A DNA stretch of 64,000 bases, from the NCBI RefSeq assembly GCF_007644045.2, contig NZ_VMDW02000099.1:248001-312000 (forward strand), read 5' to 3'. Position numbers and translations under genes: made by a program. A model generated the notes under the pieces. The model ran no database searches, was not told where the DNA came from, and was given only the letters and a program-made list of their open reading frames with translations. Positions 1-62,274 of the stretch are shown piece after piece. Position 1 is the first letter of the stretch. Each line of letters begins with the position of its first letter. This stretch comes from Vogesella urethralis. GTDB lineage: Bacteria; Pseudomonadota; Gammaproteobacteria; Burkholderiales; Chromobacteriaceae.

Positions 1-983
1 GGGAGCTGTACCAGGCCGAGCAGCGTCTGGTGCGCGTGTTCGACGCCGCCGGGGTGAAGATGCGCCTGTTCCACGGCCGGGGCGGTTCGGTTGGCCGCGG
101 CGGTGGCCCATCGTACGAAGCGATCATGGCGCAGCCGGCCGGCACCGTGGTGGGCCGCATCCGCATTACCGAGCAGGGCGAGATCATCACCGCCAAGTTT
201 GCCGACCCTGACAACGCCACCCGCAACCTGGAAGCACTGGTGGCCGCCACGCTGGAAGCCACCCTCAGCCAGGGCAGCCAGCAGGACACCGACGAGAGCG
301 TGCTGGCTGAGCTGTCCGGCCACGCCTACCGTACCTATCGTGCGCTGGTGGAATCGGACGGCTTCATGCAGTACTTCATGGAAGCCACGCCGATCAGCGC
401 CATCGCCAAACTCAACATCGGCAGCCGCCCGGCCTCGCGCAAGGCGCTGGCTAGCATCAAGGACCTGCGCGCCATTCCGTGGGTGTTCTCGTGGTCGCAA
501 TCGCGGGTGATGCTACCGGGCTGGTACGGCTTTGGCAGCGCGGTGTCGGCCTTCCTGGCCGCGCACGGTAACGACGCCGGCCTGGCCCAATTGCAGGCGC
601 TGTACCGCCAGTCGCCGTTCTTCCAGGTGATGCTGTCCAATATGGAACAGGTACTGGCCAAGGCCGACCTGCAGATCGCGCGTCGCTACGCCGCGCTGGT
701 GGGCGACGCGGCGCTGGCCGACCGCCTGTTCGGCGGCCTGCAGGCCGAGTTCGACAAGACGCTGGCCGCGTTCTTCGCCATCACCGGCCAGGACAAGCTG
801 CTGCAGGGCAACCCCACGCTGGCGCGCAGCCTGGATACCCGCCTGCCCTACCTGGACGCGCTGAACCTGCTGCAGGTGAAACTGCTGCAGCGCCTGCGCC
901 AGGAGCCGGACGACGAGGCCGCGCTGTACGCCATCCACCTCACCATCAACGGCATCTCCGCCGGCCTGCGCAACAGCGGCTAA
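1..983 (+). CDS. ppc: Phosphoenolpyruvate carboxylase, C-terminal part
   Basis: PEP carboxylase makes oxaloacetate from PEP and bicarbonate to refill the TCA cycle. The gene is cut by the window edge; reading frame 3 is open from the first bases to the TAA at 981-983. The glycine-rich catalytic loop FHGRGGSVGRGGGPSYEA lies at about bases 69-122 and is diagnostic of the family. The protein ends NGISAGLRNSG; the family C-terminus is usually close to QNTG, so this tail is slightly divergent but in the right place. A terminator follows 20 bases after the stop, and the stop codon overlaps a copy of the 13-bp repeat word of this genome. Confidence 0.97.
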   Translation, partial: ELYQAEQRLVRVFDAAGVKMRLFHGRGGSVGRGGGPSYEAIMAQPAGTVVGRIRITEQGEIITAKFADPDNATRNLEALVAATLEATLSQGSQQDTDESVLAELSGHAYRTYRALVESDGFMQYFMEATPISAIAKLNIGSRPASRKALASIKDLRAIPWVFSWSQSRVMLPGWYGFGSAVSAFLAAHGNDAGLAQLQALYRQSPFFQVMLSNMEQVLAKADLQIARRYAALVGDAALADRLFGGLQAEFDKTLAAFFAITGQDKLLQGNPTLARSLDTRLPYLDALNLLQVKLLQRLRQEPDDEAALYAIHLTINGISAGLRNSG

Positions 984-994
984 GGTTGGCCGCA
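982..994 (+). repeat. AAGGTTGGCCGCA repeat, exact copy
   Basis: Exact copy of the 13-bp word. Its first two bases are the last two of the ppc stop codon, and it precedes the ppc terminator. Confidence 0.85.
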
Positions 995-1004
995 GGGCAA
1001 GAGC

Positions 1005-1036
1005 AAGCCGGTCCGCGTGTGCGGGCCGGCTTTTTT
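1005..1036 (+). terminator. Rho-independent terminator after ppc
   Basis: The arms AAGCCGGTCCGC and GCGGGCCGGCTT (one G-T pair) enclose a GTGT loop and run into six T residues. It lies just downstream of the ppc stop. Confidence 0.85.
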
Positions 1037-1144
1037 GTTGTGCAGGTGGCAGGCTACGGCGCGTTACACGGCGTCACATTTGGCGCCTGTTGGCGGCTGG
1101 CCGGGCTGCGGATAATCGTTGCTTACACAGTGGAGGGCGCAGCG

Positions 1145-1735
1145 ATGAGCGATCACGGCAAGGACATCCAATACCTGGCAGAACACCTGCTGCATACCGG
1201 CGTGGACGGGCTGGCCAACCGCGAATTGCAAGCCTTGATGCGCATCTCGCGCAAGCTGCAGTCGGTGCGGCCGGAGCACGCGCTGCCCGATACCGGCCCG
1301 ACGCTGGGCGAGCGGCTGGCCGACCGCGTGGCCGAGTTCGGCGGCTCGTGGACCTTCATCATGATCTTCGCCGGTTTCCTGTTCTGCTGGGCGTTCATCA
1401 ACAGCGAACTGCTGGGCACCAAGGCGTTCGACCCCTACCCGTACATCTTCCTGAACCTGATGCTGTCGATGCTGGCCGCCATCCAGGCGCCGATCATCAT
1501 GATGTCGCAGAACCGCCAGGCCGCGCGCGACCGCATGACGATGATCCGCGACTTCGAAGTCAACCTGAAGGCCGAGGCGGCGATCGACAGCCTGCACAAG
1601 CGCATGGATCACCTGACCTGGGAAGTGCTGTCCGACCTGGACCTGATCAAGCAGGCGCAGCGCGAGCAATTGCGCCAGGCCAATGGTGCGGTGCCGGACA
1701 GCACGCCAGACCGCCCCGACGCTGGCGCCAGTTAG
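1145..1735 (+). CDS. DUF1003 family membrane protein
   Basis: Small inner-membrane protein of the DUF1003 family, function unknown. The start at 1145 has a GGAGG ribosome site at 1132-1136; a longer upstream open frame lacks one. The 196-residue product has a soluble N-terminus, then FGGSWTFIMIFAGFLFCWAF and a second hydrophobic segment around YIFLNLMLSMLAAIQAPIIM. It continues with the family hallmark MMSQNRQAARDR and a charged C-terminal helix. The stop overlaps by four bases the stop of the convergent DOPA-dioxygenase-like gene. Confidence 0.88.
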   Translation: MSDHGKDIQYLAEHLLHTGVDGLANRELQALMRISRKLQSVRPEHALPDTGPTLGERLADRVAEFGGSWTFIMIFAGFLFCWAFINSELLGTKAFDPYPYIFLNLMLSMLAAIQAPIIMMSQNRQAARDRMTMIRDFEVNLKAEAAIDSLHKRMDHLTWEVLSDLDLIKQAQREQLRQANGAVPDSTPDRPDAGAS

Positions 1736-2067
1736 GCGCCGCGCAGCGTGTGCAGCTTCAGCGGCAGCGGCTCGCCCAGCCAGCGCGCGGCGCTGGTGTG
1801 ACCCACCACTTCGTTGTCCAGCTCCGGGTGCAGCAGCACCGGCAGGCCGTCGCGGTATTGTTCCAGCAAGGCGGTCACCGCCGGCAGCAGCGGCTCGGCA
1901 AAGTCGATCTCGAACATCGGCCGCGTGTGCGGGCCCACTTCGCGCTCGATCAGCCGGCCCAGCCAGCAGCCGGCGGGCAGGCGCGGCACCAGCGTGGCGT
2001 GCAGGGTGGCCGCTTGCGCGGTCTGTTCGGGCAGAAAATAAACGTGGGCGTGGTAAATGGTAGTCAT
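1732..2067 (-). CDS. DOPA 4,5-dioxygenase family protein
   Basis: A 111-residue protein of the compact DOPA 4,5-dioxygenase family, extradiol-type enzymes first known from fungi and plants. The N-terminal YHAHVYF and the central VGPHTRPMFEIDF carry conserved histidines expected to hold metal, and the late HPELDNEVVGHTSAARWLG segment is also typical. The length matches bacterial members. The bacterial substrate is generally unknown, so the name describes the family, not a demonstrated reaction. The start ATG at 2067 has no strong ribosome site. The gene is convergent with the DUF1003 gene. Confidence 0.8.
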   Translation of the reverse strand: MTTIYHAHVYFLPEQTAQAATLHATLVPRLPAGCWLGRLIEREVGPHTRPMFEIDFAEPLLPAVTALLEQYRDGLPVLLHPELDNEVVGHTSAARWLGEPLPLKLHTLRGA

Positions 2068-2119
2068 TGTGTGCGTGTGATGTGAGTTTGGCGCGATGTT
2101 ATCGCACCTTGGCCGGCTT

Positions 2120-2260
2120 TTATAGCAGTGTGCGGCGCACGCGTTCGCGCGCGTCGTCCAGCAGGCGTTGCTGGCGGCAGCCCAGGCTGTCGCCGTGGCA
2201 GCACAGCGTGCGATAGACCGGGGTAAAGCAATAGGCGAATAGGCGGCGTAGCAGTTTCAT
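2120..2260 (-). CDS. Small cysteine-containing hypothetical protein
   Basis: A 46-codon open frame begins MKLLRRLFAYCFTPVYRTLC and ends with TAA at 2120-2122. It has four cysteines (11, 20, 21, 28), a basic amphipathic N-terminus and an Arg/Asp-rich tail. It is too short for most gene finders. It fills the gap between the DOPA-dioxygenase-like gene and the LysR gene, and its third-position GC looks like that of neighbouring genes. No clear ribosome site precedes it and no family is recognised, so coding status is tentative. Confidence 0.4.
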   Translation of the reverse strand: MKLLRRLFAYCFTPVYRTLCCHGDSLGCRQQRLLDDARERVRRTLL

Positions 2261-2354: not shown

Positions 2355-3257
2355 ATGAAAACAATGCCGCTGCCGGACGACGTGCTGGTGTTCGAGGCCA
2401 TTGCCCGCCTGGGTAGCCTGACGGCCGCCGCCGAGGCGCTGGGCTGTACCCGCAGCCTGGTCAGCCTGCGGCTGAAGGCACTGGAAAAACAGCTGGGCGC
2501 AGTGCTGGTATTGCGCACCACGCGGCGGCTGGCGCTGACCGAGGCCGGCCAGCAGCTGCTGCCGCACGCCCGCGCCATGCGCGAGGCGCTGGAGCGCATG
2601 CAGCACGCGGTCGATAGCGCCCAGTGTGCGGTGGAAGGCCCGCTGGCGTTGTCCACCTCGGTATCGATGGCGCCGATGCTGGCGCCGTTGCTGGCCGAGC
2701 TGGGGCGGCAACAGCCCGGCTTGCAGCTGCGGCTGGACGTGACCAACCGGGTGCAGGACCCGATCGCCGACGTGCTGGATTTCTGCCTGCGCGCGCGCAA
2801 GGTGCACGACGACTCGCTGGTGGCGCGCCCCGCAGGCTGGGTGGAGGAGGGGCTGTACGCCAGCCCGGCCTTTCTGCAGCAGCAAGGTTGGCCGCAACAC
2901 CCGGACGAGTTGCTGCGCTTTGGCCTGCTGAGCCACGACGATGGCGAGCAGCTGACGCTGGTGCGTGGCGACGACACCTGGGTACTGCAACCGGGCGCGG
3001 CGCGTATCCGCTCCAGTGCCTTCATCGCTTGCCTCAGCATGTGCGTGGCCGGCTACGGTATCAGCGTGCTGCCGCATTACATGGCGGCGCCGGCCTGCCG
3101 TCGTGGCGAGCTGCTGCGGGTGTTGCCGGACTGGCGCGGCGAGCGCTGGCCGGTGTTTCTGGTCTACCCCTACCGCCAGCCGATGCCGCGCAAGTACACG
3201 GTACTGATCGACTTCCTGCTGCCGCGCATCGCCGCCGCGCTGGCCGACCAGGCCTGA
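2355..3257 (+). CDS. LysR family transcriptional regulator
   Basis: A 300-residue LysR-type regulator. Residues 8-65 form the winged helix-turn-helix (FEAIARLGSLTAAAEALGC then SLVSLRLKALEKQLGAVLVL). The rest is a periplasmic-binding-like effector domain, with no obvious clue to the ligand. Start choice is uncertain: ATG at 2355 or 2364 would both keep the DNA-binding domain and neither has a good ribosome site. The downstream RarD-like exporter gene is 83 bases away on the same strand and may be its target. An exact copy of the 13-bp repeat word lies inside the coding sequence at 2884-2896, encoding GlnGlyTrpProGln. Confidence 0.9.
   Translation: MKTMPLPDDVLVFEAIARLGSLTAAAEALGCTRSLVSLRLKALEKQLGAVLVLRTTRRLALTEAGQQLLPHARAMREALERMQHAVDSAQCAVEGPLALSTSVSMAPMLAPLLAELGRQQPGLQLRLDVTNRVQDPIADVLDFCLRARKVHDDSLVARPAGWVEEGLYASPAFLQQQGWPQHPDELLRFGLLSHDDGEQLTLVRGDDTWVLQPGAARIRSSAFIACLSMCVAGYGISVLPHYMAAPACRRGELLRVLPDWRGERWPVFLVYPYRQPMPRKYTVLIDFLLPRIAAALADQA
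2884..2896 (+). repeat. AAGGTTGGCCGCA repeat, exact copy (coding)
   Basis: Exact copy of the 13-bp word within the effector domain of the LysR gene. Confidence 0.8.
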
Positions 3258-4261: not shown

Positions 4262-4776
4262 AACGGATTTTGCTGGCGCTGGCCACGGTGGCCACGACGT
4301 TGGCCGCCACCGCGCAAACCACGATGTCGGTACCGGTGCGCCAGGGCTGGTTTGACGGCCAGCCGGTGTGGTACCTCACCACCGACGCTTCGCGCGCCGA
4401 CGCCGCCATCGACAACGCGGCCAACCTGGTGCCCCGCTTGGCCAATGCGCTGCCCTTGAGCCGGCAGGCGCCCAACCCTCGCTCGGTGCTGGACCGCATC
4501 TACAAGTTTGCCGCCCAGCCCAGCGTGTTGCCGTCGGTGCCGCAGCCTGTGGGTGCGGCCAACCGTGACCGCGCCTATTCGCCGCTGTGGGACGTGATCA
4601 TGGTGCACTGGCAGCCGGGCCGTACCGTGCGCGAGTTGCGCTCGGTAGATGAGGTGCTGGCGGCAGAGGACGCTGGCGACGTGCGGCTGCAGCCGCTGGA
4701 CCTGGTGGTGAACTGCCCGGTGCTGCAGGTTGGCCGCCAGGCGCTGCCGGGGGTGACGCCGCTGCCGTTGCCATGA
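4258..4776 (+). CDS. Hypothetical exported protein
   Basis: A 172-residue protein with an N-terminal signal peptide (MKRILLALATVATTLAATAQ, cleavage near residue 19). The mature part holds RQGWFDGQPVWYLTTDASRA near its start and YSPLWDVIMVHW in the middle. Similar short exported proteins are scattered in proteobacteria, but I cannot name a function. It is translationally coupled to the RarD-like transporter by a four-base overlap, which suggests a shared physiological role in the envelope. The inverted repeat at 4776-4800 follows the stop directly. Confidence 0.75.
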   Translation: MKRILLALATVATTLAATAQTTMSVPVRQGWFDGQPVWYLTTDASRADAAIDNAANLVPRLANALPLSRQAPNPRSVLDRIYKFAAQPSVLPSVPQPVGAANRDRAYSPLWDVIMVHWQPGRTVRELRSVDEVLAAEDAGDVRLQPLDLVVNCPVLQVGRQALPGVTPLPLP

Positions 4777-4800: not shown

Positions 4801-4825
4801 GGGTGTTGTCGGCTGGCCGCTGCGG

Positions 4826-7814: not shown

Positions 7815-9014
7815 TTACACAAGCCAGCCGTCCGGTACCCGGCCAAAGCGCAATTGCGGCGTGCCGTGCCAGTCGGCGCACTGTTGCAAGGCCTTGCCGA
7901 TGTCTTGCTGCAGGCGCTTGCCCGGCTTGATGCCCGGCTCCAGGTACAGCGCCTTCACCTCGAACACGCCCTGGGCACGGTGCGCCTTGGCGTCCAGCCG
8001 CCCCACCAGTTGGCCGCGTACCAACAGCGGCAGCACGAAGTAGCCGTACTGGCGCTTGGGCGCCGGGGTATAGCACTCGATGCGGTAGTCGAAGCCGAAC
8101 AGCTGGCTGGCGCGCGCGCGGTGCCACACCACCGGGTCGAACGGCGACAGCACGCTGCAGGCGCTGGCTTTCAGCTGGCCGTCTGCGGCCAACCTTAGCG
8201 CGTCTTGCAGGCTGTGGTGCACGTAGCTGTCGCCCTTCAGCCCTTCTACCTGTACCGGCAGCAGCTCGCCGCTGTCGATCAGCGGCGCCAGCTCGGCGGC
8301 GCTGACCTTGCCGCGCAAGCGGTAGTAGTCGCCCACCCAGCCCGCTTGTACCAGGCCCAGTGCACGGCAGCTGGCGCGGATCATGTCGTGGCGGGCGGCA
8401 GCCGGCGTGGGCAGATGCTGCGCGTCGTCCCAGTGCGGCAGCACGCGCTCGGCCAGGTCGTACACGCGCTGGAAGTTTTCACGTTCACGCACCATCAGCT
8501 GGCCGCTGGTGAACAGTACCTCCAGGTGACGTTTTTCCGGTTTCCAGTCCCACCAGCCATTGCCCTTGCTGCCCTGGCGCGCAAAGTCGCGCGAGCGCAC
8601 CGGGCCGTGCTGGCGGATGTGCGCCAGCATCCGTTCTATCTCGGCGTGGTGCTGCTGCATCCAGCGTACCGAGTACTTCCAGCTCATGGCCGCCGGGTCC
8701 AGCATGCGGTGGCGCAGCAGGCGGTAGTCTTCCACCGGTACGAAACAGGCTTCGTGCGCCCAGTATTCGAACAGCGCGCCGTCGGCCAGCAGGCCGTCCA
8801 GCCAGGCCGGGTCGTAGTGGCCCAGGCGGCTGTACAGCACCAGGTAAGGGCTGCGTGCCACCACGCTGATGGTGTCGATCTGCAGCAGCGCCATGCGGCG
8901 GATGGCGGCCAGTACGTCGTCGCGGGTGGCCTTGCGGCGTGGCGGGGTGAGCAGGCCCTGCGCGGCGAGGTGCAGCGCGCGGGCGTCGGCAAGCGACAGG
9001 TGGGGAATGGTCAT
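7815..9014 (-). CDS. Winged-helix DNA glycosylase, YcaQ/AlkX family
   Basis: A 399-residue protein of the HTH_42 family, whose E. coli member YcaQ (AlkX) unhooks interstrand crosslinks and removes N7-alkyl purines. Catalytic family members carry a QxD motif in the first winged helix; here it is Gln45-Ile-Asp47 in LLQIDTISVV. This is followed by the conserved ARSPYLVLYSRLG and FEYWAHEACFVP segments. The start at 9014 matches the family N-terminus (LSLADARALHLAAQGL); an extension to 9140 is open but atypical. No strong ribosome site is visible. The gene stands alone. Confidence 0.88.
   Translation of the reverse strand: MTIPHLSLADARALHLAAQGLLTPPRRKATRDDVLAAIRRMALLQIDTISVVARSPYLVLYSRLGHYDPAWLDGLLADGALFEYWAHEACFVPVEDYRLLRHRMLDPAAMSWKYSVRWMQQHHAEIERMLAHIRQHGPVRSRDFARQGSKGNGWWDWKPEKRHLEVLFTSGQLMVRERENFQRVYDLAERVLPHWDDAQHLPTPAAARHDMIRASCRALGLVQAGWVGDYYRLRGKVSAAELAPLIDSGELLPVQVEGLKGDSYVHHSLQDALRLAADGQLKASACSVLSPFDPVVWHRARASQLFGFDYRIECYTPAPKRQYGYFVLPLLVRGQLVGRLDAKAHRAQGVFEVKALYLEPGIKPGKRLQQDIGKALQQCADWHGTPQLRFGRVPDGWLV
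8184..8196 (-). repeat. AAGGTTGGCCGCA repeat, exact copy (coding)
   Basis: Exact 13-bp word in the minus-strand sense, inside the YcaQ-like gene. Confidence 0.8.
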
Positions 9015-9291: not shown

Positions 9292-11157
9292 ATGTTGTTT
9301 TCCTGGTTTGAACGCCGGGTAGATGCCTACCCGGATACCCCGCCCCCGCAACCCCCGAAGGGGTTTTTCCCGTTTGTCTGGTCGGCCACCGCCGGCATGC
9401 GCGGCCTGATCCTGGCCATGGCGCTGCTGACGGCGGCGATCGGTGCCTTTGAAGCGCTGCTGTTTTCCATGCTGGGCTCCATCGTGGACTGGCTCAGTCA
9501 CGTGCCGCCGGCGCAGCTGTGGGACAAGGAGCGCGACAACCTGCTGCTCTTGGGCGCCATCCTGCTGGCCAGCCCGCTGCTGATCGCGCTGCAGGCCATG
9601 GCCAAGTACCAGGGCCTGTTCGGCAACTTCCCGATGCGCCTGCGCTGGCATTTTCACCGCCACCTGCTGAACCAGAGCATGGCGTTTTATCAGGACGAGT
9701 TTGCCGGCCGCGTGTCGGCCAAGGTGATGCAGACCGCGCTGGCGGTGCGCGACACGGTGCTGATCATCACCGACATCATGGTGTTCGTGGTGATCTACTT
9801 CATCACCATGGTGGCGGTGGTGGGCAGCTTCGACGCGGTGCTGCTGTGGCCGTTCCTGGCCTGGCTGGCGCTGTACGTGCTGACGCTGCGCTTCTTCGTG
9901 CCGCGCCTGGGCAAGGCTGCCAGCGAGCAGGCCGACGCGCGCAGCCTGATGACCGGGCGTATCACCGACGCCTACACCAATATCGCCACCGTCAAACTGT
10001 TCTCGCAGGGTAACCACGAGGCACGCTTTGCCAAGGGCGCGATGCAGGAGTTCATGCACACCGCCTATCGCCAGATGCGGCTGGTGAGCGGCTTCGAGAT
10101 CGTCAACCACATCCTCAGCATGGGCCTGATTGCCAGTACCGCCGGCGCCACGCTGTGGCTGTGGAGCCGCGGCGAAGTGGGCGTAGGGGCAGTCGCCGCC
10201 GCCACCGCCATGGCGCTGCGCCTGAACGGCGTGTCGCACTGGATCATGTGGGAGATGTCCAGCCTGTTCGAGAATATCGGCACCGTGCAGGACGGCATTA
10301 CCACGCTGTCGCGCCCGATTGCCATCCACGACGCGCCGGACGCGCGCCCGCTGCAGGTTGGCCGCGGCGAGCTGCGTTTCGACAACGTGCGCTTCAGCTA
10401 CGGCGGCGAAAAAGTGGTGATCGACGGCCTGAACCTCACCATCCGCCCTGGCGAGAAAATCGGCCTGGTTGGCCGCAGCGGCGCCGGCAAGTCCACCATC
10501 GTCAACCTGCTGCTGCGGTTTTACGAGCTGGAAAGCGGCCGCATCCTGATTGATGGTCAGGACATCCGCCAGGTGACGCAGGACAGCCTGCGCGCGCAGG
10601 TGGGCATGGTGACGCAGGACACCTCGCTGCTGCACCGCTCGGTGCGCGACAACCTGTGTTACGGCCGCATGGACGCCAGCGACGCCGACATGATCGCGGC
10701 AGCGCAGAAGGCCGAGGCGCACGAGTTCATCCTGCAGCTGACCGACCCCAAGGGCCGCACCGGCTACGACGCCCACGTCGGCGAGCGCGGCGTCAAGCTG
10801 TCCGGCGGCCAGCGCCAGCGCGTGGCCATCGCCCGCGTGATGCTGAAGGACGCGCCTATCCTGCTGCTGGACGAAGCCACCAGTGCGCTGGACTCGGAAG
10901 TAGAAGCCGCCATCCAGAGCAGCCTGTACCGGCTGATGGAAGGCAAGACCGTGGTGGCCATCGCCCACCGCCTGTCCACCATCGCTGCGATGGACCGGCT
11001 GATCGTGCTGGACAAGGGCCGGGTGGTGGAAGAGGGTAGCCACGAGCAGCTGCTGGCCAGGGGCGGCCTGTACGCCCGGCTGTGGGCGCACCAGAGCGGT
11101 GGTTTCCTGGGCGAGGAGATCGACCCCGACGAAGAGGCCGCGCTGGCGGCCGGCTAA
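9292..11157 (+). CDS. ABC exporter, fused permease and ATPase
   Basis: A 621-residue half-transporter of the MsbA/ATM type that works as a homodimer in the inner membrane. An unusual Pro-rich N-terminus (PDTPPPQPPKGF) precedes about six transmembrane helices (residues 35-320). The nucleotide-binding domain has Walker A GRSGAGKST, the signature LSGGQRQRVAIAR, Walker B ILLLDEATSALD and the H-loop IAHRLST. AAGGAG at 9279-9284 sits eight bases before the ATG. Substrate cannot be told from sequence; lipid or drug export is usual for this class. A repeat word and a strong terminator follow the stop, so it is likely monocistronic. Confidence 0.93.
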   Translation: MLFSWFERRVDAYPDTPPPQPPKGFFPFVWSATAGMRGLILAMALLTAAIGAFEALLFSMLGSIVDWLSHVPPAQLWDKERDNLLLLGAILLASPLLIALQAMAKYQGLFGNFPMRLRWHFHRHLLNQSMAFYQDEFAGRVSAKVMQTALAVRDTVLIITDIMVFVVIYFITMVAVVGSFDAVLLWPFLAWLALYVLTLRFFVPRLGKAASEQADARSLMTGRITDAYTNIATVKLFSQGNHEARFAKGAMQEFMHTAYRQMRLVSGFEIVNHILSMGLIASTAGATLWLWSRGEVGVGAVAAATAMALRLNGVSHWIMWEMSSLFENIGTVQDGITTLSRPIAIHDAPDARPLQVGRGELRFDNVRFSYGGEKVVIDGLNLTIRPGEKIGLVGRSGAGKSTIVNLLLRFYELESGRILIDGQDIRQVTQDSLRAQVGMVTQDTSLLHRSVRDNLCYGRMDASDADMIAAAQKAEAHEFILQLTDPKGRTGYDAHVGERGVKLSGGQRQRVAIARVMLKDAPILLLDEATSALDSEVEAAIQSSLYRLMEGKTVVAIAHRLSTIAAMDRLIVLDKGRVVEEGSHEQLLARGGLYARLWAHQSGGFLGEEIDPDEEAALAAG

Positions 11158-11168
11158 GGTTGGCCGCA
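11156..11168 (+). repeat. AAGGTTGGCCGCA repeat, exact copy
   Basis: Exact copy; its first two bases are the end of the ABC exporter stop codon, as with ppc. The terminator follows ten bases later. Confidence 0.85.
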
Positions 11169-13355: not shown

Positions 13356-13368
13356 TGCGGCCAACCTT
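13356..13368 (-). repeat. AAGGTTGGCCGCA repeat, exact copy
   Basis: Exact copy on the minus strand, between the pckG terminator and the stop of the convergent qor gene. A second, weaker copy (CTTGGCCGCA) follows in the opposite sense at about 13373-13382. Confidence 0.85.
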
Positions 13369-16427: not shown

Positions 16428-17009
16428 TCAGGGCCGGGCCGGAACCTGGCCTGTGATCGCCAGCAGGCCGGGCAGGCATTGCGGCCAACCTTGCAGCCGG
16501 TGATCGTCGCCGTTCAATACCGTGGTGGCCGCGCCGCGGTAGTAGCGTACCGCCTGGCGCCAGTCCAGCACTTCGTCTGCCGTTCCCAGCACCAGCCAGT
16601 AGTTGGCCGCCGTCAGCCGCGGCGGCCGCAGCGCCAGCAGTTCGTCCATGTGGTGCCAGCCCAGCGTGTAGTGCTCGCCGGTGTACGGGTTGTGCAGCGG
16701 GCCGATGAAGCGCGCCAGGTCGTCTTCCGGGCGGATGGCGGGGTTGATCAGCACCGCCGGCAGGGCAAAGCGTTCTGCCAACCAGGTGGCGTAATAGCCG
16801 CCCAGCGAGCTGCCGATCAGCACCACCGGCCGCTGGAAGCCGGTCAGATACTGCGTCATCTGCGCCATGGCCTGCGCCGGGTAGGGCGATAGCTGCGGGC
16901 TGTCGAAGGTGGCCTCTGGTGCGATGGCGTGCAGGTAGGCGCGGGTTTCCTGCGCTTTCAGCGATTGCGGGCCGGACTGGAAGCCGTGCAGGTACAGGTA
17001 GTGGGTCAT
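16428..17009 (-). CDS. YqiA/YcfP family alpha/beta hydrolase
   Basis: A 193-residue single-domain alpha/beta hydrolase of the UPF0227 type, putative esterase. The oxyanion-hole region is YLYLHGFQSGPQS, and the nucleophile elbow is GSSLGGYYA, with the catalytic Ser in VLIGSSLGG. The late GTADEVLDW Asp and the GDDHRLQG His complete the likely triad. Start 17009 gives the family N-terminus MTHYLYLHGF; the eight-residue extension to 17033 is unlikely. The stop lies six bases from the stop of the convergent hybrid kinase gene. An exact repeat word lies in its 3' end. Confidence 0.88.
   Translation of the reverse strand: MTHYLYLHGFQSGPQSLKAQETRAYLHAIAPEATFDSPQLSPYPAQAMAQMTQYLTGFQRPVVLIGSSLGGYYATWLAERFALPAVLINPAIRPEDDLARFIGPLHNPYTGEHYTLGWHHMDELLALRPPRLTAANYWLVLGTADEVLDWRQAVRYYRGAATTVLNGDDHRLQGWPQCLPGLLAITGQVPARP
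16480..16492 (-). repeat. AAGGTTGGCCGCA repeat, exact copy (coding)
   Basis: Exact copy in the minus-strand sense within the last 70 bases of the YqiA-like gene. Confidence 0.8.
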
Positions 17010-17971: not shown

Positions 17972-21700
<3,729 letters not shown>

Positions 21701-21704
21701 AGCC

Positions 21705-21724
21705 TGCGGCCAACGTTGGCCGCA
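21705..21724. repeat. Inverted double copy of the repeat word
   Basis: A perfect 20-bp palindrome made of two overlapping repeat words in opposite sense (TGCGGCCAACGTTGGCCGCA), with G for the first A/T pair at the junction. It sits between the metH stop and the terminator. Confidence 0.8.
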
Positions 21725-21850: not shown

Positions 21851-21863
21851 AAGGTTGGCCGCC
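21851..21863 (+). repeat. Repeat word, 12 of 13 match
   Basis: AAGGTTGGCCGCC in the leader of the GH75-like gene, one mismatch at the last base. Confidence 0.65.
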
Positions 21864-31666: not shown

Positions 31667-31679
31667 AAGGTTGGCCGCA
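31667..31679 (+). repeat. AAGGTTGGCCGCA repeat, exact copy
   Basis: Exact intergenic copy between the nagE terminator and gap. Confidence 0.85.
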
Positions 31680-33063: not shown

Positions 33064-33076
33064 AGGGTTGGCCGCA
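33064..33076 (+). repeat. Repeat word, 12 of 13 match
   Basis: AGGGTTGGCCGCA just after the gap terminator. Confidence 0.65.
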
Positions 33077-36561: not shown

Positions 36562-38497
36562 GGTAGCGTTCGTACTGTTTCAGCACGTCGGCGATGATCT
36601 CGCTGCGGCGCAGGTAGCGGATGTCGTAGCCCTCGCGGCCGTCGGCAAAATCGGTTTGCGCCAGGTACTGGTATACGCCGTCGTCGGCCCGCGCCGGCAG
36701 GAACGCCGGTTGCGGCTGGCCGTGGCAGTACACGCGGTAGACGAAGTCGCGGGCGCCGGGCTGGTCGATGCGCAGCAGCACGCTGCCGTCGTCGCGGCGT
36801 TGTACGCCAGCGCTGACACCGTTGTGGCTGAGCTCGTCGGCCACGGTGCGCAGCGCCGGCTGCACTTCGGTGTCGATGAACTGCTGCACGGTGGCGGCGT
36901 CCGGGCGCTGCACCAGCTGCCGCAGGCGTTGCTGCCAGTGGTGGCCGCTCCAGAACTGTGTGGCCGGCGCCGGTTGCTGCGTCTGGTGGCAATGGTCGGA
37001 CTGCAGACCGCGCCACAGGCTGTAGCACAGCAACAGCATGATGGCGGTAAACGGCAGCGCGCTGACCAGCGTCATCGCCTGCAGCGCCTTCAGGCCGCCT
37101 GCGGTGAGCAGTACGCCGGCGGTGACGCCCAGCAATACCGCCCAGAACAGGCGCTGCCACAACGGTGACGCGGTATCGCCGCCGCTGGCAATGCTGTCCA
37201 GCACCATGGCGCCAGAGTCGGCCGAGGTGACGAAGAACACCGCAATCAGCAGCATGGCCACGCTGCCGCTCAGCAGCGGGAACGGTAGGTAATCGAAGAA
37301 GCGGAACAGCAGGCTGTCCACGTTGGCCGCCGCGCTGCCTAGCGCGCCGGCGGCGACGTGCATATCCAGCCAGATGGCGCTGTTACCGAACACCGTCATC
37401 CACAGGAAGTTGAACAGTGTGGGCACCAGCAGCACGCCGACAATGAATTCACGCAGCGTGCGCCCGCGCGAGATGCGGGCAATGAACAGGCCGACAAACG
37501 GCGACCACGACACCCACCACGCCCAGTACAGCAGCGTCCAGCCGGACAGCCATTGTTGCTGCGCGTCGCTGCCGTAACTGAAGGTGCGGAAGGTGAGGTC
37601 CACCATGCCGGACAAGTAGCTGCCCAGGTTGTCGCTGAACGTCATCAGCAGGTAAACGGTAGGGCCGGCACACAGCACGAACAGCAGCAATAGCAGCGCC
37701 AGGCCGAGGTTGAGTTCGCTCAGGCGGCGCACGCCTTTGTCGAGGCCGGTGGCGGCCGACAGCCCGGCCAGCCCCATCACCACCGCGATTAGCCCCAGCT
37801 TGAAGCCATCGCTGGCGGTGTCGATACCGGCCAGTTGCTGCAGGCCGGCGGCCAACTGCATCACGCCGAAACCGAGCGTGGTGGCGATGCCGAACACGGT
37901 GGAAACCAGCGCGAACACGTCCACCGCGTGGCCCCACGGCCCGTGGATGCGCTCACCCAGAATCGGGTACAAGCCGGCGCGCAGCGTCAGTGGCAGCCGG
38001 TAACGGAAGCCGAAGTAGGCCAGTACCAGCCCCACCACGCCGTAGATGGCCCACGCGTGCAGGCCCCAGTGGTGGAAGGTGAGGTTCATCGCCTGCTGCG
38101 CGGCCGCTTGCGGGTTGGCCGCGGCCAACGGTGGCGCCAGATAATGCTGCAGCGGTTCGCCGACGCCGAAGTACATCAGGCCGATGCCCATGCCGGCGGC
38201 AAACAACATGGCCAGCCACGATGGCAGGCTGAACGCCGGCGTGGCGTCATCCGGCCCCAGTTTGATGTCGCCGTAGCGGCTGACGGCAATGCCCAGCAGC
38301 GTCAGCAGGAACACGGCGACCGCCAGGATGTAAAACCAACCGAATTGCTGGCTGACGGTGCGCTGGGCGGCGCCCAACAAGGCTTCGGCGGAAGTCGGGG
38401 CCAGCGTGGCCCAGGCCAGGATCAGGCCGATCAGCAGCAGGCCGGGCACGAATACCGGCCAGCTGAGGGTAGTGCGGAAGGAACGGACGGAGGCCAT
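36500..38497 (-). CDS. betT: BCCT family transporter, BetT-like
   Basis: A 665-residue secondary transporter of the betaine/choline/carnitine family. There are twelve predicted helices, with the family signature WWVSWSPFVGLFIARISRGRTL in two overlapping parts and the glycine-rich GMGIGLMYFGVGEP. A long C-terminal hydrophilic domain (about 510-665) is the osmosensing tail of BetT-type choline carriers, and the length matches E. coli BetT (677). AAGGGAAAGC precedes the start. No betA/betB genes are near, so choline is a guess; another quaternary amine is possible. Its 3' end overlaps ctlX on the opposite strand. Confidence 0.88.
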   Translation of the reverse strand: MASVRSFRTTLSWPVFVPGLLLIGLILAWATLAPTSAEALLGAAQRTVSQQFGWFYILAVAVFLLTLLGIAVSRYGDIKLGPDDATPAFSLPSWLAMLFAAGMGIGLMYFGVGEPLQHYLAPPLAAANPQAAAQQAMNLTFHHWGLHAWAIYGVVGLVLAYFGFRYRLPLTLRAGLYPILGERIHGPWGHAVDVFALVSTVFGIATTLGFGVMQLAAGLQQLAGIDTASDGFKLGLIAVVMGLAGLSAATGLDKGVRRLSELNLGLALLLLLFVLCAGPTVYLLMTFSDNLGSYLSGMVDLTFRTFSYGSDAQQQWLSGWTLLYWAWWVSWSPFVGLFIARISRGRTLREFIVGVLLVPTLFNFLWMTVFGNSAIWLDMHVAAGALGSAAANVDSLLFRFFDYLPFPLLSGSVAMLLIAVFFVTSADSGAMVLDSIASGGDTASPLWQRLFWAVLLGVTAGVLLTAGGLKALQAMTLVSALPFTAIMLLLCYSLWRGLQSDHCHQTQQPAPATQFWSGHHWQQRLRQLVQRPDAATVQQFIDTEVQPALRTVADELSHNGVSAGVQRRDDGSVLLRIDQPGARDFVYRVYCHGQPQPAFLPARADDGVYQYLAQTDFADGREGYDIRYLRRSEIIADVLKQYERYLSLQWQQHGQLLSSAPAHPG

Positions 38498-43240: not shown

Positions 43241-43253
43241 TGCGGCCAACCTT
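43241..43253 (-). repeat. AAGGTTGGCCGCA repeat, exact copy
   Basis: Exact minus-strand copy between the barrel-gene terminator and the stop of the SDR gene. Confidence 0.85.
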
Positions 43254-45594: not shown

Positions 45595-46632
45595 ATGCCT
45601 GAGCCGTTCCGCGTTTCCCCCCTGCCGCACGATGCGGCCAACCTGGCCGCCGCGCTGGCCTTGCACGACGCTGCCCACGCGCTGGAGGTAGCCTGGCTGG
45701 ACGGTTACCGTCTGCCACGGCTGTGGCGTACGGTGGACGATATCGTCAGCAGTCCGCTGCAGATTCTGGCGGCCTGGGACGAGGCGGGGACGCTGTGCGG
45801 TTTGCTGACCCTGGGGCGCTACAAGGATGGCCGCGCCGATATCGCCCGCACGCTGGTACACCCGCAGCGGCTGGGCGAGGGCTGGGCCGGCCGCCTGCTG
45901 ACGGTGGCGTTGCAGCACGAGCAAGCTGCCACGGTGATGACGGCGGCGGCCAACCGTGCGGCCGTGCGTTGCTACCAGAAAGCCGGCTTTGTCGAAAGCA
46001 AGCGCTTTGCCGCGCCGGACGGCCTGCCGCTGTTGCGGCTGGCGTGGACGCGCGACGACAGCCCGCTACCGCTGAGCCTGGGCGACGATGGCTGGGTAAA
46101 CGAGGCACAGCACGTGCCGTCGCCCAACTGCGACGACTACCCGGCGCCGGCCGCCACCCCGTTGCTGGTGGTGCACAATATCAGCCTGCCGCCGTACCGT
46201 TACGGTGGCAGCGGCGTGGCCGAGCTGTTCACCAATACGCTGGACCCCGCCGCGCACCCGTTTTACGCCGAGATCGCGCACCTGCGCGTGTCCTGCCACT
46301 TTTTCATCCGCCGCGACGGTAGCCTGGTTCAGTTTGTGCCGGTGCACCGCCGCGCCTGGCACGCCGGCGCCTCGCAGTGGCAGGGGCGCGAACGCTGCAA
46401 CGATTTTTCGCTGGGGGTGGAGCTGGAAGGCTGCGATTTCGAGCCGTTCGCCCACGCCCAGTACCGCACCCTCGCCGCGCTGGCGCAACTGCTGCAGGCG
46501 CAGTGCGGCGTGCAGGCCATTACCGGCCACGAGCACATCGCCCCCGGCCGCAAGACCGACCCCGGCCCGTACTTCGACTGGGCACGGTTGTCGGCCACGC
46601 TGGGGCGGCCGTTGCCGGAAAATGCAGCCTGA
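45595..46632 (+). CDS. GNAT acetyltransferase-AmpD amidase fusion
   Basis: A 345-residue two-domain protein. Residues 1-155 resemble a GNAT N-acetyltransferase, with an acetyl-CoA loop like QRLGEGWAGRLL and the C-terminal AANRAAVRCYQKAGF. Residues 163-340 are a complete AmpD, the cytoplasmic amidase that cleaves 1,6-anhydro-muropeptides during peptidoglycan recycling. GWVNEAQHVPSPNCDDYP is the normal AmpD N-terminus. Zinc ligands are His194, His312 and Asp322, with the catalytic Glu in LGVELEG and Lys320 in RKTDPG. CGGAG precedes ATG 45595. AmpD normally stands alone, so the fused GNAT domain is unusual. Confidence 0.88.
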   Translation: MPEPFRVSPLPHDAANLAAALALHDAAHALEVAWLDGYRLPRLWRTVDDIVSSPLQILAAWDEAGTLCGLLTLGRYKDGRADIARTLVHPQRLGEGWAGRLLTVALQHEQAATVMTAAANRAAVRCYQKAGFVESKRFAAPDGLPLLRLAWTRDDSPLPLSLGDDGWVNEAQHVPSPNCDDYPAPAATPLLVVHNISLPPYRYGGSGVAELFTNTLDPAAHPFYAEIAHLRVSCHFFIRRDGSLVQFVPVHRRAWHAGASQWQGRERCNDFSLGVELEGCDFEPFAHAQYRTLAALAQLLQAQCGVQAITGHEHIAPGRKTDPGPYFDWARLSATLGRPLPENAA

Positions 46633-48604: not shown

Positions 48605-48632
48605 AAAAAGGTTGGCCGCGGCCAACCTTTTT
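48605..48632. terminator. Terminator built from two repeat words
   Basis: A perfect 28-bp palindrome: AAAAAGGTTGGCCG and its complement CGGCCAACCTTTTT. It is two inverted repeat words fused at GCCGCGGC, with A and T tracts on either side, one base after the EamA stop and 18 bases from the kup stop. It can serve both convergent genes. Confidence 0.8.
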
Positions 48633-54954: not shown

Positions 54955-56439
54955 TCAGGCCAGTCGGGCCGGCATGCGGCCATGGGCGTCCAGGGTGCCT
55001 TGCAGCCAGTCGCTGACGGCGTGCAGGGCGGCGTCGGCAAAGCCGTAGGTCAGCAATGCCGGGGCGTTCAGGTCGGCGGCGGCGTAGGGGTTCCACAGCG
55101 CCAGGTGCAGGTCGGGCTGCCAGCTGGCGGCCTCGCGCGCGCCGTAGCGTTCGCGGGTGGTGGAGGCCAGTACGGTGTAGCGGCCATCCTGTGGCAGCGT
55201 CGCCCAGTCCAGCGCCTCGCGGCGGGCAAAGGTGACCACGTCCAGCTCGAAGGCTTCACCCAGCACGGCGATCAGCCGTTCGGCCGACAGGCCGGCTTCC
55301 GATACGCCGTCGGACGGCGCCTGTTGTTGCACCACCAGGCGCAGCTGGCGCGAGGTTGGCCGCAACGGCTGGCCATGGGCGGTGAGGGCGCGGCGCCAGG
55401 CGTCGGCAAACAGCGCCTCGTCGGCCGCGCGTTGGCTGGCGGGGTAGTCGCGGGTGCGGCTGGGGTGACGGGCCACCAGGGCGTTGACGCGCTGCTCGGC
55501 CTCGGCCAGCCGTGCGCTGCCCAGGCTGCCGTCGCGGACGGCGTCTTCCAGCGCCTGGCGGCTGGCGAGCATTTCGTCGCGGAACTGCAGCACCAGCGAC
55601 AGGTCGGCGCCGGCGCGCAGCGCCTGTGCCGTACCGGCGGCCTGGCCCCAGCGCTCGCGGATGGCTTTCATGTTCATGCCGTCGGTGATGGCCACGCCCT
55701 GGTAGCCCCATTGCTGGCGCAGCAGGGTGCCGAGGATGGCCGGCGACAGCGTGGCCGGCCACGCTTCGTCCAGCTGCGGAAACAGGATGTGCGCGCTCAT
55801 CAGCGACGCGCTGTGCGGCAGCAGGGCGCGGAACGGCGCCAGCTCGTAGTCGTCCAGCGCGGCGCGCGGTTTGTCCACCACCGGCAGGTCGAGATGCGAG
55901 TCGGTATGGGTGTCGCCGTGGCCGGGGAAGTGCTTGACGCAGCAGGCGATGTTTTCCTGCTGGTGGCCCTGCATCCAGGCGGCGGCCAACCTCACCGCGC
56001 TTTCCGGGTGCTCGCCAAAGCTGCGCTCGCCGATCACCGGGTTTTGCGGGTTGTTGTTCAGGTCCAGCACCGGGCCGTAGTTGAGGTTGATGCCAAGCGA
56101 CGCCAGGCCGCGCGCCAGCGCAGCGCCCACGTTGCGCGCCAGCGCCTCGTCGCCCACCGCGCCCAGCGCCATGGCCGACGGCGCTTGCGGCAGGAACAGC
56201 GTGCGCATCACGGCGCCGCCTTCCTGATCGATGCCGATCAGCACGTCGTCGCCACAGGCGGCGCGCAGCTGCTCTACCAGCGCACGGGTCTGGGCCGCGT
56301 CCTGCACGTTGCGGCGGAACAGGCAGATGGCGCGGATATGGTTGTCGCGCAGGAAGGCTTGGTCGTCGGCGTCCAGCGTGGTGCCGGGCACATCCACCAT
56401 CAGGGCACGGCCGGCGAGGCGGCGCAGGTCTTGGCTCAT
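54955..56439 (-). CDS. GH3 beta-N-acetylhexosaminidase
   Basis: A 494-residue cytoplasmic glycoside hydrolase family 3 enzyme, NagZ-like but longer than the usual 340 residues. The acid/base loop is KHFPGHGDTHTDSHLDLPVV (169-188), with the His174/Asp176 dyad of the N-acetylglucosaminidase subgroup. The nucleophile is Asp253 in ITDGMNMKAI. An extra C-terminal domain (about 340-494) follows. No signal peptide. Its start overlaps the permease stop (56436-56439), so it is part of the ABC operon. Expected role is to release GlcNAc from imported chitooligosaccharides; muropeptide recycling is the alternative. Confidence 0.9.
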   Translation of the reverse strand: MSQDLRRLAGRALMVDVPGTTLDADDQAFLRDNHIRAICLFRRNVQDAAQTRALVEQLRAACGDDVLIGIDQEGGAVMRTLFLPQAPSAMALGAVGDEALARNVGAALARGLASLGINLNYGPVLDLNNNPQNPVIGERSFGEHPESAVRLAAAWMQGHQQENIACCVKHFPGHGDTHTDSHLDLPVVDKPRAALDDYELAPFRALLPHSASLMSAHILFPQLDEAWPATLSPAILGTLLRQQWGYQGVAITDGMNMKAIRERWGQAAGTAQALRAGADLSLVLQFRDEMLASRQALEDAVRDGSLGSARLAEAEQRVNALVARHPSRTRDYPASQRAADEALFADAWRRALTAHGQPLRPTSRQLRLVVQQQAPSDGVSEAGLSAERLIAVLGEAFELDVVTFARREALDWATLPQDGRYTVLASTTRERYGAREAASWQPDLHLALWNPYAAADLNAPALLTYGFADAALHAVSDWLQGTLDAHGRMPARLA

Positions 56440-59572: not shown

Positions 59573-60164
59573 GCTGGGACTCTCGCGTAGGTTGTGTTGT
59601 GCTGGCGTGGGCGGCCGCGGCAGGGCCGGCTTGCGCCTGTGTGCTACCGGTTGGCAGCACACGCTTTCCGTGTTTGGCCGTGGCGTTGGCGGGTTGTTGT
59701 AATGCCTTGTGACCGCGGCGAAGCCAATCTAATACCAGCGAAATACCAGAGCAATACCAATGTGAAACCTTTTGCCAATGTTGCAGTGCGACTACATCAA
59801 AAATGCAACAGAAGCTTATTGGAATCGATACCAAACTGCTAAAAATCAGCATTTTAGTAACGGGCGTTATTATTTTGCCGTTTCCGATTTTCAAGCATTA
59901 TTCTGGCGTTTTTTCAGTATTTTTGCGCACGTATATGCCATAAAGGCGAATGGCTAACACGTGCTCAGCTTGTGCTGCGCTGCGAAAGAAAAAGCAGGAA
60001 ATGCCCGTCAGTACTGGTCTGTATTGGTATGCCAGCTGGTGTTGCACTGGTATGGCCAGCAGGCTGGCTGACGGGCAAAGGTTGGCCGCACGGCTAGCGT
60101 GGGCAGGCGAGAGTAGAGATCACGCCCATGGCATACTGGGCGCCTGCCCGATAGGTAAAACGCC
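59573..60164. promoter_or_regulatory. Divergent regulatory region, ABC operon / KAP gene
   Basis: About 590 bases without a gene. On the minus strand (toward the binding-protein gene) three TGGTATT direct repeats lie at 59731-59737, 59742-59748 and 59753-59759, exactly 11 bp apart and in the same orientation to their gene as in the nagR promoter. Further out is the 17-bp near-palindrome 59817-59833 shared with gap. The segment 59720-59960 is AT-rich. Toward the KAP gene an exact repeat word lies at 60078-60090. Small ORFs here lack ribosome sites. Confidence 0.7.
60078..60090 (+). repeat. AAGGTTGGCCGCA repeat, exact copy
   Basis: Exact intergenic copy 75 bases before the KAP NTPase gene. A second exact copy, in the opposite sense, lies just beyond the other end of that gene. 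Confidence 0.85.
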
Positions 60165-62228
60165 ATGACCGATACTGCTACTGATTTGCCCAAGCTACTA
60201 ACTGACGCGCCAGCCAAAGCCGAAGAGGACCTGCTGGGCTTCCAGCCGCACGCTGACAGGTTGGCTGATCTGATCCTGAAACAGATTCCGAACAAAGCCA
60301 GCTTTGTCATCGGCATCGAAGGCGAATGGGGCGAGGGCAAGTCCAGCTTCATTAACCTGCTGAAAGACGCCTTTCCTACTGACGATACGCGGCCAACCAT
60401 CGTCGATTTCAACCCGTGGTGGTTTGAAGGCTCGGACCAGTTGCTGCGGCATTTCTTTGATGAGCTATTGGGGCAGATCGACCGCTCCGGTCGCTGGACG
60501 GCACCCGCCCGCAAGTTCATGCGCGGGCTTGCCGGCCTACTGGATGGAGGGGGTAAAGCGGCTCAACTAGTATCAGATCCTGGCGTGATAGCCGCAGGTA
60601 AGACGGCCGAAAAGGCTGGAGGACTTCTGAAGAAGTTGGGCGGTGAAAAGACCAGGTCGGCCCAAGTATTGAAAGCCAGCTCTAAGCACGTGCTGGAAGC
60701 GCAACGCTTTAAAACCGTCGTCTTCATCGATGACCTCGACCGCTTGCCAGCGAGAGAGATTGTCGAGCTGTTCCGCGTCATCAAGGCGGTGGCCGACCTG
60801 CCCAATATCGTCTACGTCATCGCCTACGACCGCGCCATCGTGGCGTCGGCGCTCGATGAGATTCATCCCGGAAGAGGTGGCGAGGCATATCTGGAGAAAA
60901 TCGTGCAGCTGCCGTACCGCTTGCCGAAGCCGACCGAAGAGAAACTGGAGAGTTACAACAAAAATGCCTTGTTTGGCAGTGGTGCAGTGTCTGCTGTCGT
61001 GCCAGAGAAGCTTGAAGCTGAAATGTCGTTCCGCTACATCAGCCAAGCTTTTTTGAAGCTACCGAGAGATGTAAAGCGCTTGCAGGGTAGCCTGTGCGCG
61101 TTTGGCCTTGTTCCCGAAACCATTCGCATGGATCCGCTGGATTTCATGTTTCTGGAAGCTCTAAGGATCAAAGAGCATGTGCTGTGGCTGCAATTGACAA
61201 GTGCAATGCTGGAAGCACATTCGTATATGAACGTTGCGGAGGGTACCGAGAAGCGGGATGTTGCGCGCAAGGATTGGTTGCGGAAAAGATTGCCAGCCCT
61301 TATTGGGGCCGAAGTGCCAGTTGCGGATGCAATCAGATTTTTCACGGGATGGGTACTGGACGGTAATGCTGATATCTGTCGGGATCAGTCGGCACAAAGG
61401 CTCAGTAGGTTGAGTACTACCGTGCATCTTGTTCAAGGTTCACATGATTGGCAGGTAGAAATTGATGTGCTGCTGGATATGGTTCGTGCCTATTTACAGC
61501 AACAGCAAGATAAAAAGCAGTTTAGCAATGAAAAAATCAGACGCTACTTAATGGCAGGATCTGTATCTGAGCTTGCCATGGCCCAGCCAGGTCATCTATC
61601 AGGGCGATTCCTTTATGGGGCTGAAAACTTTCTGAATCATGGACAGCTTGCTGAGTTTGATTATGAACGCCATTTACGGGTTGTGGCGATGGCCCTGGAG
61701 CAGGAAATTCATGTCAATCACCAGATGGAGCCCAGCTATTGGCTAAGGTTGCTTTACCGTCATGTGAGTTTGACGAGACACCTACCAGAAATTCAACAAT
61801 TCCAACCTTTGGCATTCATCGAAAAATTGCTTGCCGGTGGTGCTCCGTTATTGATTACGTGGCTAACCTTTAGCAGTTATACAGACTGGCATGTGTACAG
61901 GGAGCGAGTGATTGCTCATCATCTGATGCATGGATTGGCAGATTTACTGATTTTGCCAGACCCAGTGGTTGTCGCTTCTGTTCTGAAAGGCATGGGTGAT
62001 ACAGATCAGGAAGAGCAGCAGCTGTGGAATGCGCGATTACCTTCTTGTCTTGATGAGGATGCATCCAGCGCATTGCAGAGAATATTTGAAGTGCAGGGCA
62101 GTAGAGCCATGCTAGAGAGTTGTTGGCTGACTGCTTGCCCGCCCTTTGTTGCCTTGGTCCGCCAACTCCCACGTCCTGAAAGTGGCCCGGTGCCCTGGGA
62201 CGCTTTCCTGCAAAAAGCCACCGTCTAA
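60165..62228 (+). CDS. KAP family P-loop NTPase
   Basis: A 687-residue KAP-family NTPase. Walker A is GEWGEGKSS (53-61), followed by the KAP hallmark [12 protein letters not shown] (82-93) and Walker [11 protein letters not shown] (185-194). Beyond about residue 330 the C-terminal half is unrecognised. No obvious membrane helices interrupt the NTPase domain, unlike many KAP proteins. The 5' third is GC-rich like the neighbours, but the rest is clearly AT-richer (61501-61560 has 21 G/C in 60). KAP NTPases occur in several phage-defence loci, so a defence role is possible, but no partner genes are present. Confidence 0.88.
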
Positions 62229-62238
62229 ACTGCACCAA

Positions 62239-62259
62239 GGGGCGGTCGCCGGCCGCCCC
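62239..62259. other. GC-rich hairpin after the KAP gene
   Basis: GGGGCGG and CCGCCCC arms ten bases after the stop, without a T run. It may stabilise or end the transcript. Confidence 0.45.
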
Positions 62260-62261
62260 GT

Positions 62262-62274
62262 TGCGGCCAACCTT
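62262..62274 (-). repeat. AAGGTTGGCCGCA repeat, exact copy
   Basis: Exact minus-strand copy between the KAP gene and proS. Confidence 0.85.

What the first reader, a model, noticed from the sequence alone, without database searches (positions are those of the whole stretch)
982..62274. A 13-bp word, AAGGTTGGCCGCA, is scattered through the window like a DNA uptake sequence
Exact copies at 982, 2884, 8184(-), 11156, 13356(-), 16480(-), 31667, 43241(-), 60078 and 62262(-). Seven of the ten are intergenic although most of the DNA is coding, and many more copies have one mismatch (4736, 10354, 21851, 27636, 29537, 33064, 55352). A given 13-mer is expected about 0.002 times in 64 kb on both strands with uniform bases. 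It often starts on a stop codon and sits next to terminators. Neisseriaceae uptake sequences behave this way, but the dialects I know (GCCGTCTGAA and relatives) differ from this word. It may be a new uptake dialect in a related family, or a chromosome-architecture or methylation site.
Basis: partly seen in the sequence, partly recalled or inferred. Interest (0 to 1): 0.8.

Follow-up and report, generated by a model that had tools for sequence, protein, structure and literature searches.

The report
New DNA uptake words outside Neisseriaceae
Water bacteria of the genus Vogesella and some related genera carry hundreds of copies of a short DNA word that looks like the password Neisseria uses to recognise DNA from its own kind, together with a relative of the protein that reads it; this suggests that such passwords are more widespread and more variable than recorded.

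Summary
In detail: 10 exact 13-mers in the window, against 0.10 in a codon-aware null. The genome has 379 copies, 186/193 by strand, with none of the reversed control. The genus is Vogesella. The 12-mer AGGTTGGCCGCA occurs 680-1095 times in 13 of 13 Vogesella genomes, but at most 15 times in 48 other genomes of the family.

Ten of those 48 carry sister words: AGGTTGGCCGAA in eight (68-610 copies), AGGTTGGCCGAG in two (428, 731). The other 38 have 0-6 copies of each.

The word behaves like a DNA uptake sequence: no significant replichore bias, intergenic enrichment, a rigid core GTTGGCCGC, and inverted pairs far more often than tandem ones (65 to 4). All 13 Vogesella genomes encode a pilin related to ComP, the Neisseria uptake-sequence receptor, beside a pilQ-type secretin gene and aroB in the two loci annotated.

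Two defining features fail: the CTG core is CCG, and ComP's two-disulfide plan is missing. I therefore file it not as a Neisseriaceae DUS dialect but as a DUS-type variant in Chromobacteriaceae. Uptake and binding are untested.

The parts
982..994 (+). exact word AAGGTTGGCCGCA, overlapping the stop of the upstream gene
2884..2896 (+). exact word, inside predicted gene 2364-3257
4554..4566 (-). one-mismatch copy (ACGGTTGGCCGCA)
8184..8196 (-). exact word, inside predicted gene 7815-9014
11156..11168 (+). exact word, overlapping the stop of gene 9292-11157
13356..13368 (-). exact word, intergenic
16480..16492 (-). exact word, inside predicted gene 16428-17009
18579..18591 (-). one-mismatch copy (ACGGTTGGCCGCA)
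21705..21724 (.). perfect 20-bp dyad TGCGGCCAACGTTGGCCGCA: two overlapping divergent copies
21851..21863 (+). one-mismatch copy
27636..27648 (-). one-mismatch copy in a gene; one relative (L177) has the full 12-mer here by a single substitution
29537..29549 (-). one-mismatch copy
31112..31124 (-). one-mismatch copy of the 13-mer (exact 12-mer), shared with five other Vogesella genomes (L177-L181)
31667..31679 (+). exact word, intergenic
33064..33076 (+). one-mismatch copy
38114..38129 (.). overlapping convergent core pair GTTGGCCGCGGCCAAC
43241..43253 (-). exact word, intergenic
45633..45645 (-). one-mismatch copy
48608..48629 (.). palindromic pair AAGGTTGGCCGCGGCCAACCTT with A/T runs: terminator-like on both strands
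55352..55364 (+). one-mismatch copy
60078..60090 (+). exact word, upstream of gene 60165-62228
62262..62274 (-). exact word, downstream of gene 60165-62228; inside ORF 62225-63973, which has no Pfam match

Best explanation
The word is a DNA uptake sequence of the Neisseria DUS type in Vogesella. Its rigid core is GTTGGCCGC, with a preferred AG before it and A after it. A surface pilin orthologous to ComP, encoded beside a pilQ-type secretin gene in the loci examined, binds double-stranded DNA carrying the word. The type IV pilus pulls that DNA through PilQ and ComEC passes it inward. Because DNA with the word is taken up and recombined preferentially, copies accumulate by point substitution on both strands, wherever protein sequence allows and most of all between genes. 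Inverted pairs are kept partly because some also work as transcription terminators. Sister genera use re-spelled words ending GAA or GAG in place of GCA, each with its own ComP relative. SHOWN: abundance, distribution, core rigidity, pairing, sister words, the ComP-type gene and its predicted fold; substitution origin in a small sample. INFERRED: binding, uptake bias, the drive that maintains the copies, and the one-to-one match of word and pilin.
Confidence: 0.83

Rival explanations
1. Chromosome architecture, segregation or recombination-stimulating site (KOPS-, matS- or Chi-like).
For: High copy number and presence along the whole chromosome.
Against: No significant strand or replichore bias in 20 stretches of a single-contig genome; half of the 12-mers lie in the 19% intergenic DNA; the word is re-spelled between sister genera, and no chromosome protein was found to follow it (none was sought).
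Confidence: 0.04
2. Methylation or restriction site, or a cyanobacterial HIP1-like over-represented word of unknown selection (HIP1 recalled). The word contains GGCC.
For: It contains a palindromic GGCC centre; some copies form perfect dyads.
Against: The rigid part is an asymmetric 9-mer with a preferred 12-13-mer context, longer than usual methylase sites (recalled); inverted pairing and intergenic bias are not expected; sister genera vary the last two bases.
Confidence: 0.05
3. A dispersed mobile or structural element (REP/MITE type) or simply a terminator family.
For: Inverted pairs, some with T-runs. Six of 28 ortholog rows have a gap in the aligned word.
Against: Single copies dominate (690 singles against 59 pairs within 40 bp); 39 of 82 12-mers are in genes in several frames; aligned intragenic sites differ mainly by substitutions and none shows an inserted segment (small sample); no conserved flank in the 67 window contexts beyond about 13 bp.
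Confidence: 0.03
4. An uptake word that is recognised by another pilin (a PilE-, FimT/GspH- or PpdA/ComN-type protein) and not by the ComP relative; possibly related to the Pasteurellaceae USS. This rival overlaps with the best explanation except for the reader protein.
For: The reverse complement of the Vogesella 13-mer matches the extended Hin-USS at 10 of 13 positions, reached by 0.24% of random window 13-mers, a rarer match than its 8 positions to the DUS, reached by 12%. A GspH-type pilin gene precedes comP in G001.
Against: The USS core GCGG is present only in the Vogesella spelling, not in the GAA or GAG sister words. In the family a ComP relative tracks the word: by the Vogesella profile all 23 word-bearing genomes score above all 38 others (91.7 against 88.7 bits at the boundary), though the margin is small and partly phylogenetic.
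Confidence: 0.12

Closest known systems
DNA uptake sequence (DUS) dialects of Neisseriaceae
   Same: A 12-mer with two looser 5' bases and a rigid core; hundreds to thousands of copies on both strands; inverted pairs, some with terminator features; dialects that follow genera; ComP-type receptor gene. AGGTTGGCCGAA matches AG-mucDUS and AG-simDUS at 9 of 12 positions in register. The A/C switch at +9 (GAA/GCA) is one of the two changes that separate king3DUS from kingDUS (text).
   Different: CCG in place of the invariant CTG; outside Neisseriaceae; 680-1095 copies in 3.3-4.1 Mb, at or below the low end of the 943-5918 quoted.
ComP, minor pilin and DUS receptor of Neisseria
   Same: PF16732 and N-methyl domains; N-terminal helix and five strands in the model; best PDB match 5hz7; the LLxNAxFxExFY...G.(Y/F)K.(T/S)....WP.LP stretch is visible in the PDB alignments.
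   Different: Usually two cysteines in the globular part, eight or nine residues apart in A2, in place of the two disulfides and DD-region described for ComP; pI not uniformly high.
Uptake signal sequence (USS) of Pasteurellaceae
   Same: Same kind of genomic signature; 10 of 13 positions match the extended Hin-USS on the reverse strand.
   Different: The core GCGG is not kept in the sister words; a different class of bacteria (recalled); different proposed receptor (PpdA/ComN, PMC12616744, passages).

Membership tests
Neisseriaceae DUS | Over-represented 10-12-mer on both strands across the genome | tested here: met
   13 of 13 Vogesella genomes, even strands, reversed control 0
Neisseriaceae DUS | CTG at positions +6 to +8 in every dialect | tested here: not met
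   the word has CCG there; no single variant at those positions exceeds 1 copy against 229 exact; definition from PMC3630211, section read
Neisseriaceae DUS | A at position +10 | tested here: met
   met in AGGTTGGCCGCA and AGGTTGGCCGAA; not met in the GAG word of genus g4
Neisseriaceae DUS | Inverted pairs, often terminator-associated | tested here: met
   65 inverted, 4 tandem; T-run flanks in 6 of 24 convergent and 5 of 35 divergent pairs, 35 of 690 singles
Neisseriaceae DUS | Raises uptake and transformation of DNA that carries it | not testable with these tools
   needs experiment
Neisseriaceae DUS | Host in family Neisseriaceae | tested here: not met
   genus Vogesella by contigs of matching length; Chromobacteriaceae in NCBI
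ComP receptor | Pfam ComP_DUS plus N-terminal methylation motif | tested here: met
   8 of the 8 scanned, out of 13
ComP receptor | Pilin fold with five strands, ComP as nearest solved fold | tested here: met
ComP receptor | Two disulfide bridges, one stapling the DD-region | tested here: not met
   two cysteines in the globular part in 7 of 8 Vogesella rows of A2, three in one; definition from PMC12061091, passages
ComP receptor | Electropositive DNA-binding stripe | tested here: inconclusive
   globular pI 5.6-9.4 in the 8 Vogesella rows of A2; surface potential not computed
ComP receptor | Sequence-specific binding to the genome's own word | not testable with these tools
   needs EMSA or similar
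Pasteurellaceae USS | GCGG inner core | tested here: not met
   present in the reverse complement of the Vogesella word only; absent from the GAA and GAG sister words (words; core)
KOPS/Chi-type polar sites | Strong orientation bias by replichore | tested here: not met
   34 and 48 by local GC skew

The most novel reading that the evidence does not exclude
The DUS-ComP password system is older than Neisseriaceae. The common ancestor with Chromobacteriaceae already had a 12-mer of the form AGGnnGnCnGAA read by a ComP pilin; its supposedly indispensable CTG core was re-spelled between CTG and CCG as the receptor lost or gained a disulfide-stapled loop; and Chromobacterium and other genera lost the word while keeping a decayed ComP.
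Probability: 0.42. Interest if true: 0.87.

Novelty: new variant of a known kind. Interest (0 to 1): 0.78.

Why it matters
Self-recognising DNA uptake by genomic words is described for Neisseriaceae and Pasteurellaceae. PMC3630211 places the origin of DUS after the split from Chromobacterium and names CTG as a strict core. If the present reading is right, both statements need revision: sister genera use a CCG word, and ComP relatives exist in Chromobacteriaceae, including genomes without any word. That gives a natural series of three word spellings with their pilins, and word-less relatives, in which the co-evolution of a password and its reader, and its loss, can be tested in water bacteria. 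It also makes Vogesella a candidate for natural transformation with word-tagged DNA.

Tried and rejected
Replication and segregation polarity was rejected. Insertion of a mobile element is disfavoured by ortholog alignments, a small sample: one region of the window against 9 relatives, giving 28 rows: 10 shared, 12 with substitutions only, 6 with a gap in the aligned word (four at 28839 with offsetting one-base gaps, two at 31668). Two of the 12 substitution rows are also at the intergenic site 31668, which cannot be aligned reliably.

PF16732 alone does not identify the receptor: it also hits PilE-type pilins elsewhere, and in G010 it missed the ComP relative that the profile A1 found. The idea that the word-poor stretches L066 and L067 of G001 are prophages was not supported: the ten proteins scanned gave enzyme, transporter and regulator domains and one DUF. 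Word density does fall from 0.86-0.96 per kb at 63-70% G+C to about 0.3 per kb below 60%, which fits acquired DNA but can also reflect composition.

The ComP-profile score as a predictor of the word was tested beyond the family. The 11 genomes of f44 in the order sample scored 94-122 bits. Of six sampled, five (G187, G344, G103, G424, G224) showed a known DUS dialect as top 12-mer, which is why I take f44 for Neisseriaceae; the sixth, G147, showed none in its one readable 20-kb stretch, the other stretch reading N. G254 of f41 (106 bits), the two f16 genomes, G428 and G338 showed no such word in 40-60 kb each. So the score does not by itself predict a word.

Letter similarity was tested for descent. 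The Vogesella word is closer to the USS (10 of 13) than to the DUS (8); the GAA word is 9 to both. Letters do not settle ancestry.

A ComEC tree (20 of the 61 family genomes; G021 left out as its ComEC is split) needs four gains or losses of the word and leaves deep forks open.

Paper searches for the word or for uptake sequences in this family. None of the listings showed a report by title or abstract. Listings were seen for all; for PMC3630211 passages and two sections, for PMC12061091 and PMC12616744 passages only. Supplements were not available, so Table S1D of PMC3630211 was not seen, nor were subscription papers and preprints.

An absent family in that list is not evidence.
Full report
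OBSERVATION. Chance is excluded by dinucleotide shuffles (mean 0.22 for 0-1 mismatch, largest 2, in 100) and by 300 shuffles that keep every predicted protein, each gene's codon usage and intergenic dinucleotides (exact 13-mer mean 0.10, max 2; core GTTGGCCGC mean 7.2, max 13, observed 67). Pieces of the same word head the lists of over-represented 8-13-mers in the window.

WHOLE GENOME AND GENUS. The window lies in a 4.03-Mb draft (157 contigs) with 186 + and 193 - copies and none of the reversed control. The 12-mer AGGTTGGCCGCA occurs 680-1095 times in 13 of 13 genomes of the genus, and 0-15 times in the other 48 genomes held for the family. The 24 genomes of the order outside the family gave at most 5. 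The genus is Vogesella: contigs named V. margarita, V. alkaliphila, V. fluminis and V. indigofera have the same lengths as contigs of G003, G005, G012 and G006. The species of the window itself is not named.

ANATOMY. In 1.02 Mb of pooled Vogesella DNA (51 loci, some of them orthologous to one another) there are 229 exact 12-mers against 0.39 expected. Each of the 27 single substitutions at positions 3-11 occurs 0-4 times, whereas positions 1, 2 and 12 vary. So the rigid part is GTTGGCCGC, with a looser AG before and A after, much like the 10-mer plus two 5' bases of Neisseria DUS. Neighbouring cores within 60 bp are inverted in 65 of 69 cases. Dyads such as TGCGGCCAACGTTGGCCGCA recur (19 divergent pairs at offset 9). 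T-run flanks accompany 6 of 24 convergent and 5 of 35 divergent pairs within 40 bp, but 35 of 690 single sites. The window pair at 48608-48629 scores as a terminator on both strands, although terminator-like patterns as a whole are not in excess there (21 against 17.4, sd 3.5).

DISTRIBUTION. In a single-contig Vogesella genome (G001) sampled at 20 places (400 kb) the 12-mer shows no significant bias by GC skew (34 and 48; core 139 and 156). Of 82 12-mers, 43 lie in the 19.4% of DNA called intergenic by a simple gene caller of my own. The core is about three times rarer below 60% G+C than at 63-70%. In one aligned region the intragenic sites differ between species by point substitutions at 25179, 27636, 31112 and, in one relative, 28838; at the last site four other relatives show offsetting one-base gaps in the aligned word. 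The site at 31112 is intact in six Vogesella genomes, the window's included, and altered in four others.

SISTER WORDS. An 80-kb survey of one genome for each of nine other genera of the family found GTTGGCCGAA or GTTGGCCGAG as the top 10-mer in five (g2, g3, g4, g5, g10), and no such word in four. Whole-genome counts: AGGTTGGCCGAA 68-610 in eight genomes (three of g2, two of g3, one each of g5 and g10, and G017 of g6); AGGTTGGCCGAG 731 and 428 in the two g4 genomes. That is 23 word-bearing and 38 word-less genomes of 61, the latter with 0-6 copies of each spelling. In an order sample of 399 genomes, 386 of them outside this family, none of the 386 exceeded 9 for AGGTTGGCCGAR. The survey method recovered a known DUS dialect as top 12-mer in five of six f44 genomes sampled; the sixth (G147) had one stretch withheld and no DUS-type word in the other 20 kb. 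One g7 genome (G035) has the length I recall for C. violaceum ATCC 12472; apart from that the other genera are unnamed here.

MECHANISM. Most likely the pilin reads the word on DNA outside the cell, the pilus draws it through PilQ, and ComEC (over cut-off in 11 of 13 Vogesella) passes it on. Biased uptake plus recombination then spreads the word by conversion of near-matches, which would explain the rigid core, the substitution origin, the even strands, the intergenic excess and the low density in low-G+C DNA. Everything from binding onward is inference.

COMPARISON. The word is not a member of the Neisseriaceae DUS as defined: the CTG core, reported as conserved in all dialects and required for transformation (PMC3630211), is CCG, and the pilin lacks ComP's two-disulfide plan (PMC12061091). 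It works like one in the genomic respects tested. AGGTTGGCCGAA matches two DUS dialects at 9 of 12 positions in register; 1.1% of random window 12-mers do as well. The Vogesella spelling matches the extended Hin-USS better (10 of 13, reverse strand, 0.24% by chance), so letters alone do not prove descent from DUS. PMC3630211 found no obvious DUS in Chromobacterium, Pseudogulbenkiania, Lutiella and Laribacter and no ComP by BLAST in C. violaceum; the present word-less g7 genomes, if they are Chromobacterium, agree on the word, while ComP relatives do appear in g7 by profile.

PRIOR REPORTS. The listings show none, by title or abstract, for this word or for an uptake sequence in Chromobacteriaceae; subscription papers, preprints and supplements were not searched.

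Noticed in passing
60165-62228: KAP-family P-loop NTPase gene (PF07693), bracketed by exact word copies at 60078 (+) and 62262 (-).
   Followed up: no
window, CGATATCG: Palindromic 8-mer CGATATCG counted 20 times over both strands (10 places) against 2.4 expected by the same count.
   Followed up: no
L140-L143 (G021): A second repeated word, TGCTTAAGC, 20 copies against 0.3 expected in 80 kb, in the same genome as a GAA uptake-type word.
   Followed up: no
L108-L111 (G022): CATGAGGATTCC occurs 6 times, expected 0.00, in 3 of 4 stretches.
   Followed up: no
L144-L145 (G045): About 26 copies of words such as GATGTGCACTAA and ACTAACCGGAAC in one 20-kb stretch, perhaps a repeat array.
   Followed up: no
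L066, L067 (G001, 3.40 and 3.60 Mb): Two 20-kb stretches of low G+C with 0 and 3 12-mers; the ten proteins scanned gave no phage families.
   Followed up: partly
G254 (f41), C1:674988-676668: Three ComP/PilE-type pilin matches in tandem in a genome without a visible uptake word in 60 kb.
   Followed up: no
L035 8470-9006 (G001); L047 9493-10032 (G011): A pilin gene (GspH-type by Pfam in G001; no family for the shorter reading scanned in G011) lies directly upstream of the ComP relative, possibly a second DNA-binding pilin.
   Followed up: partly
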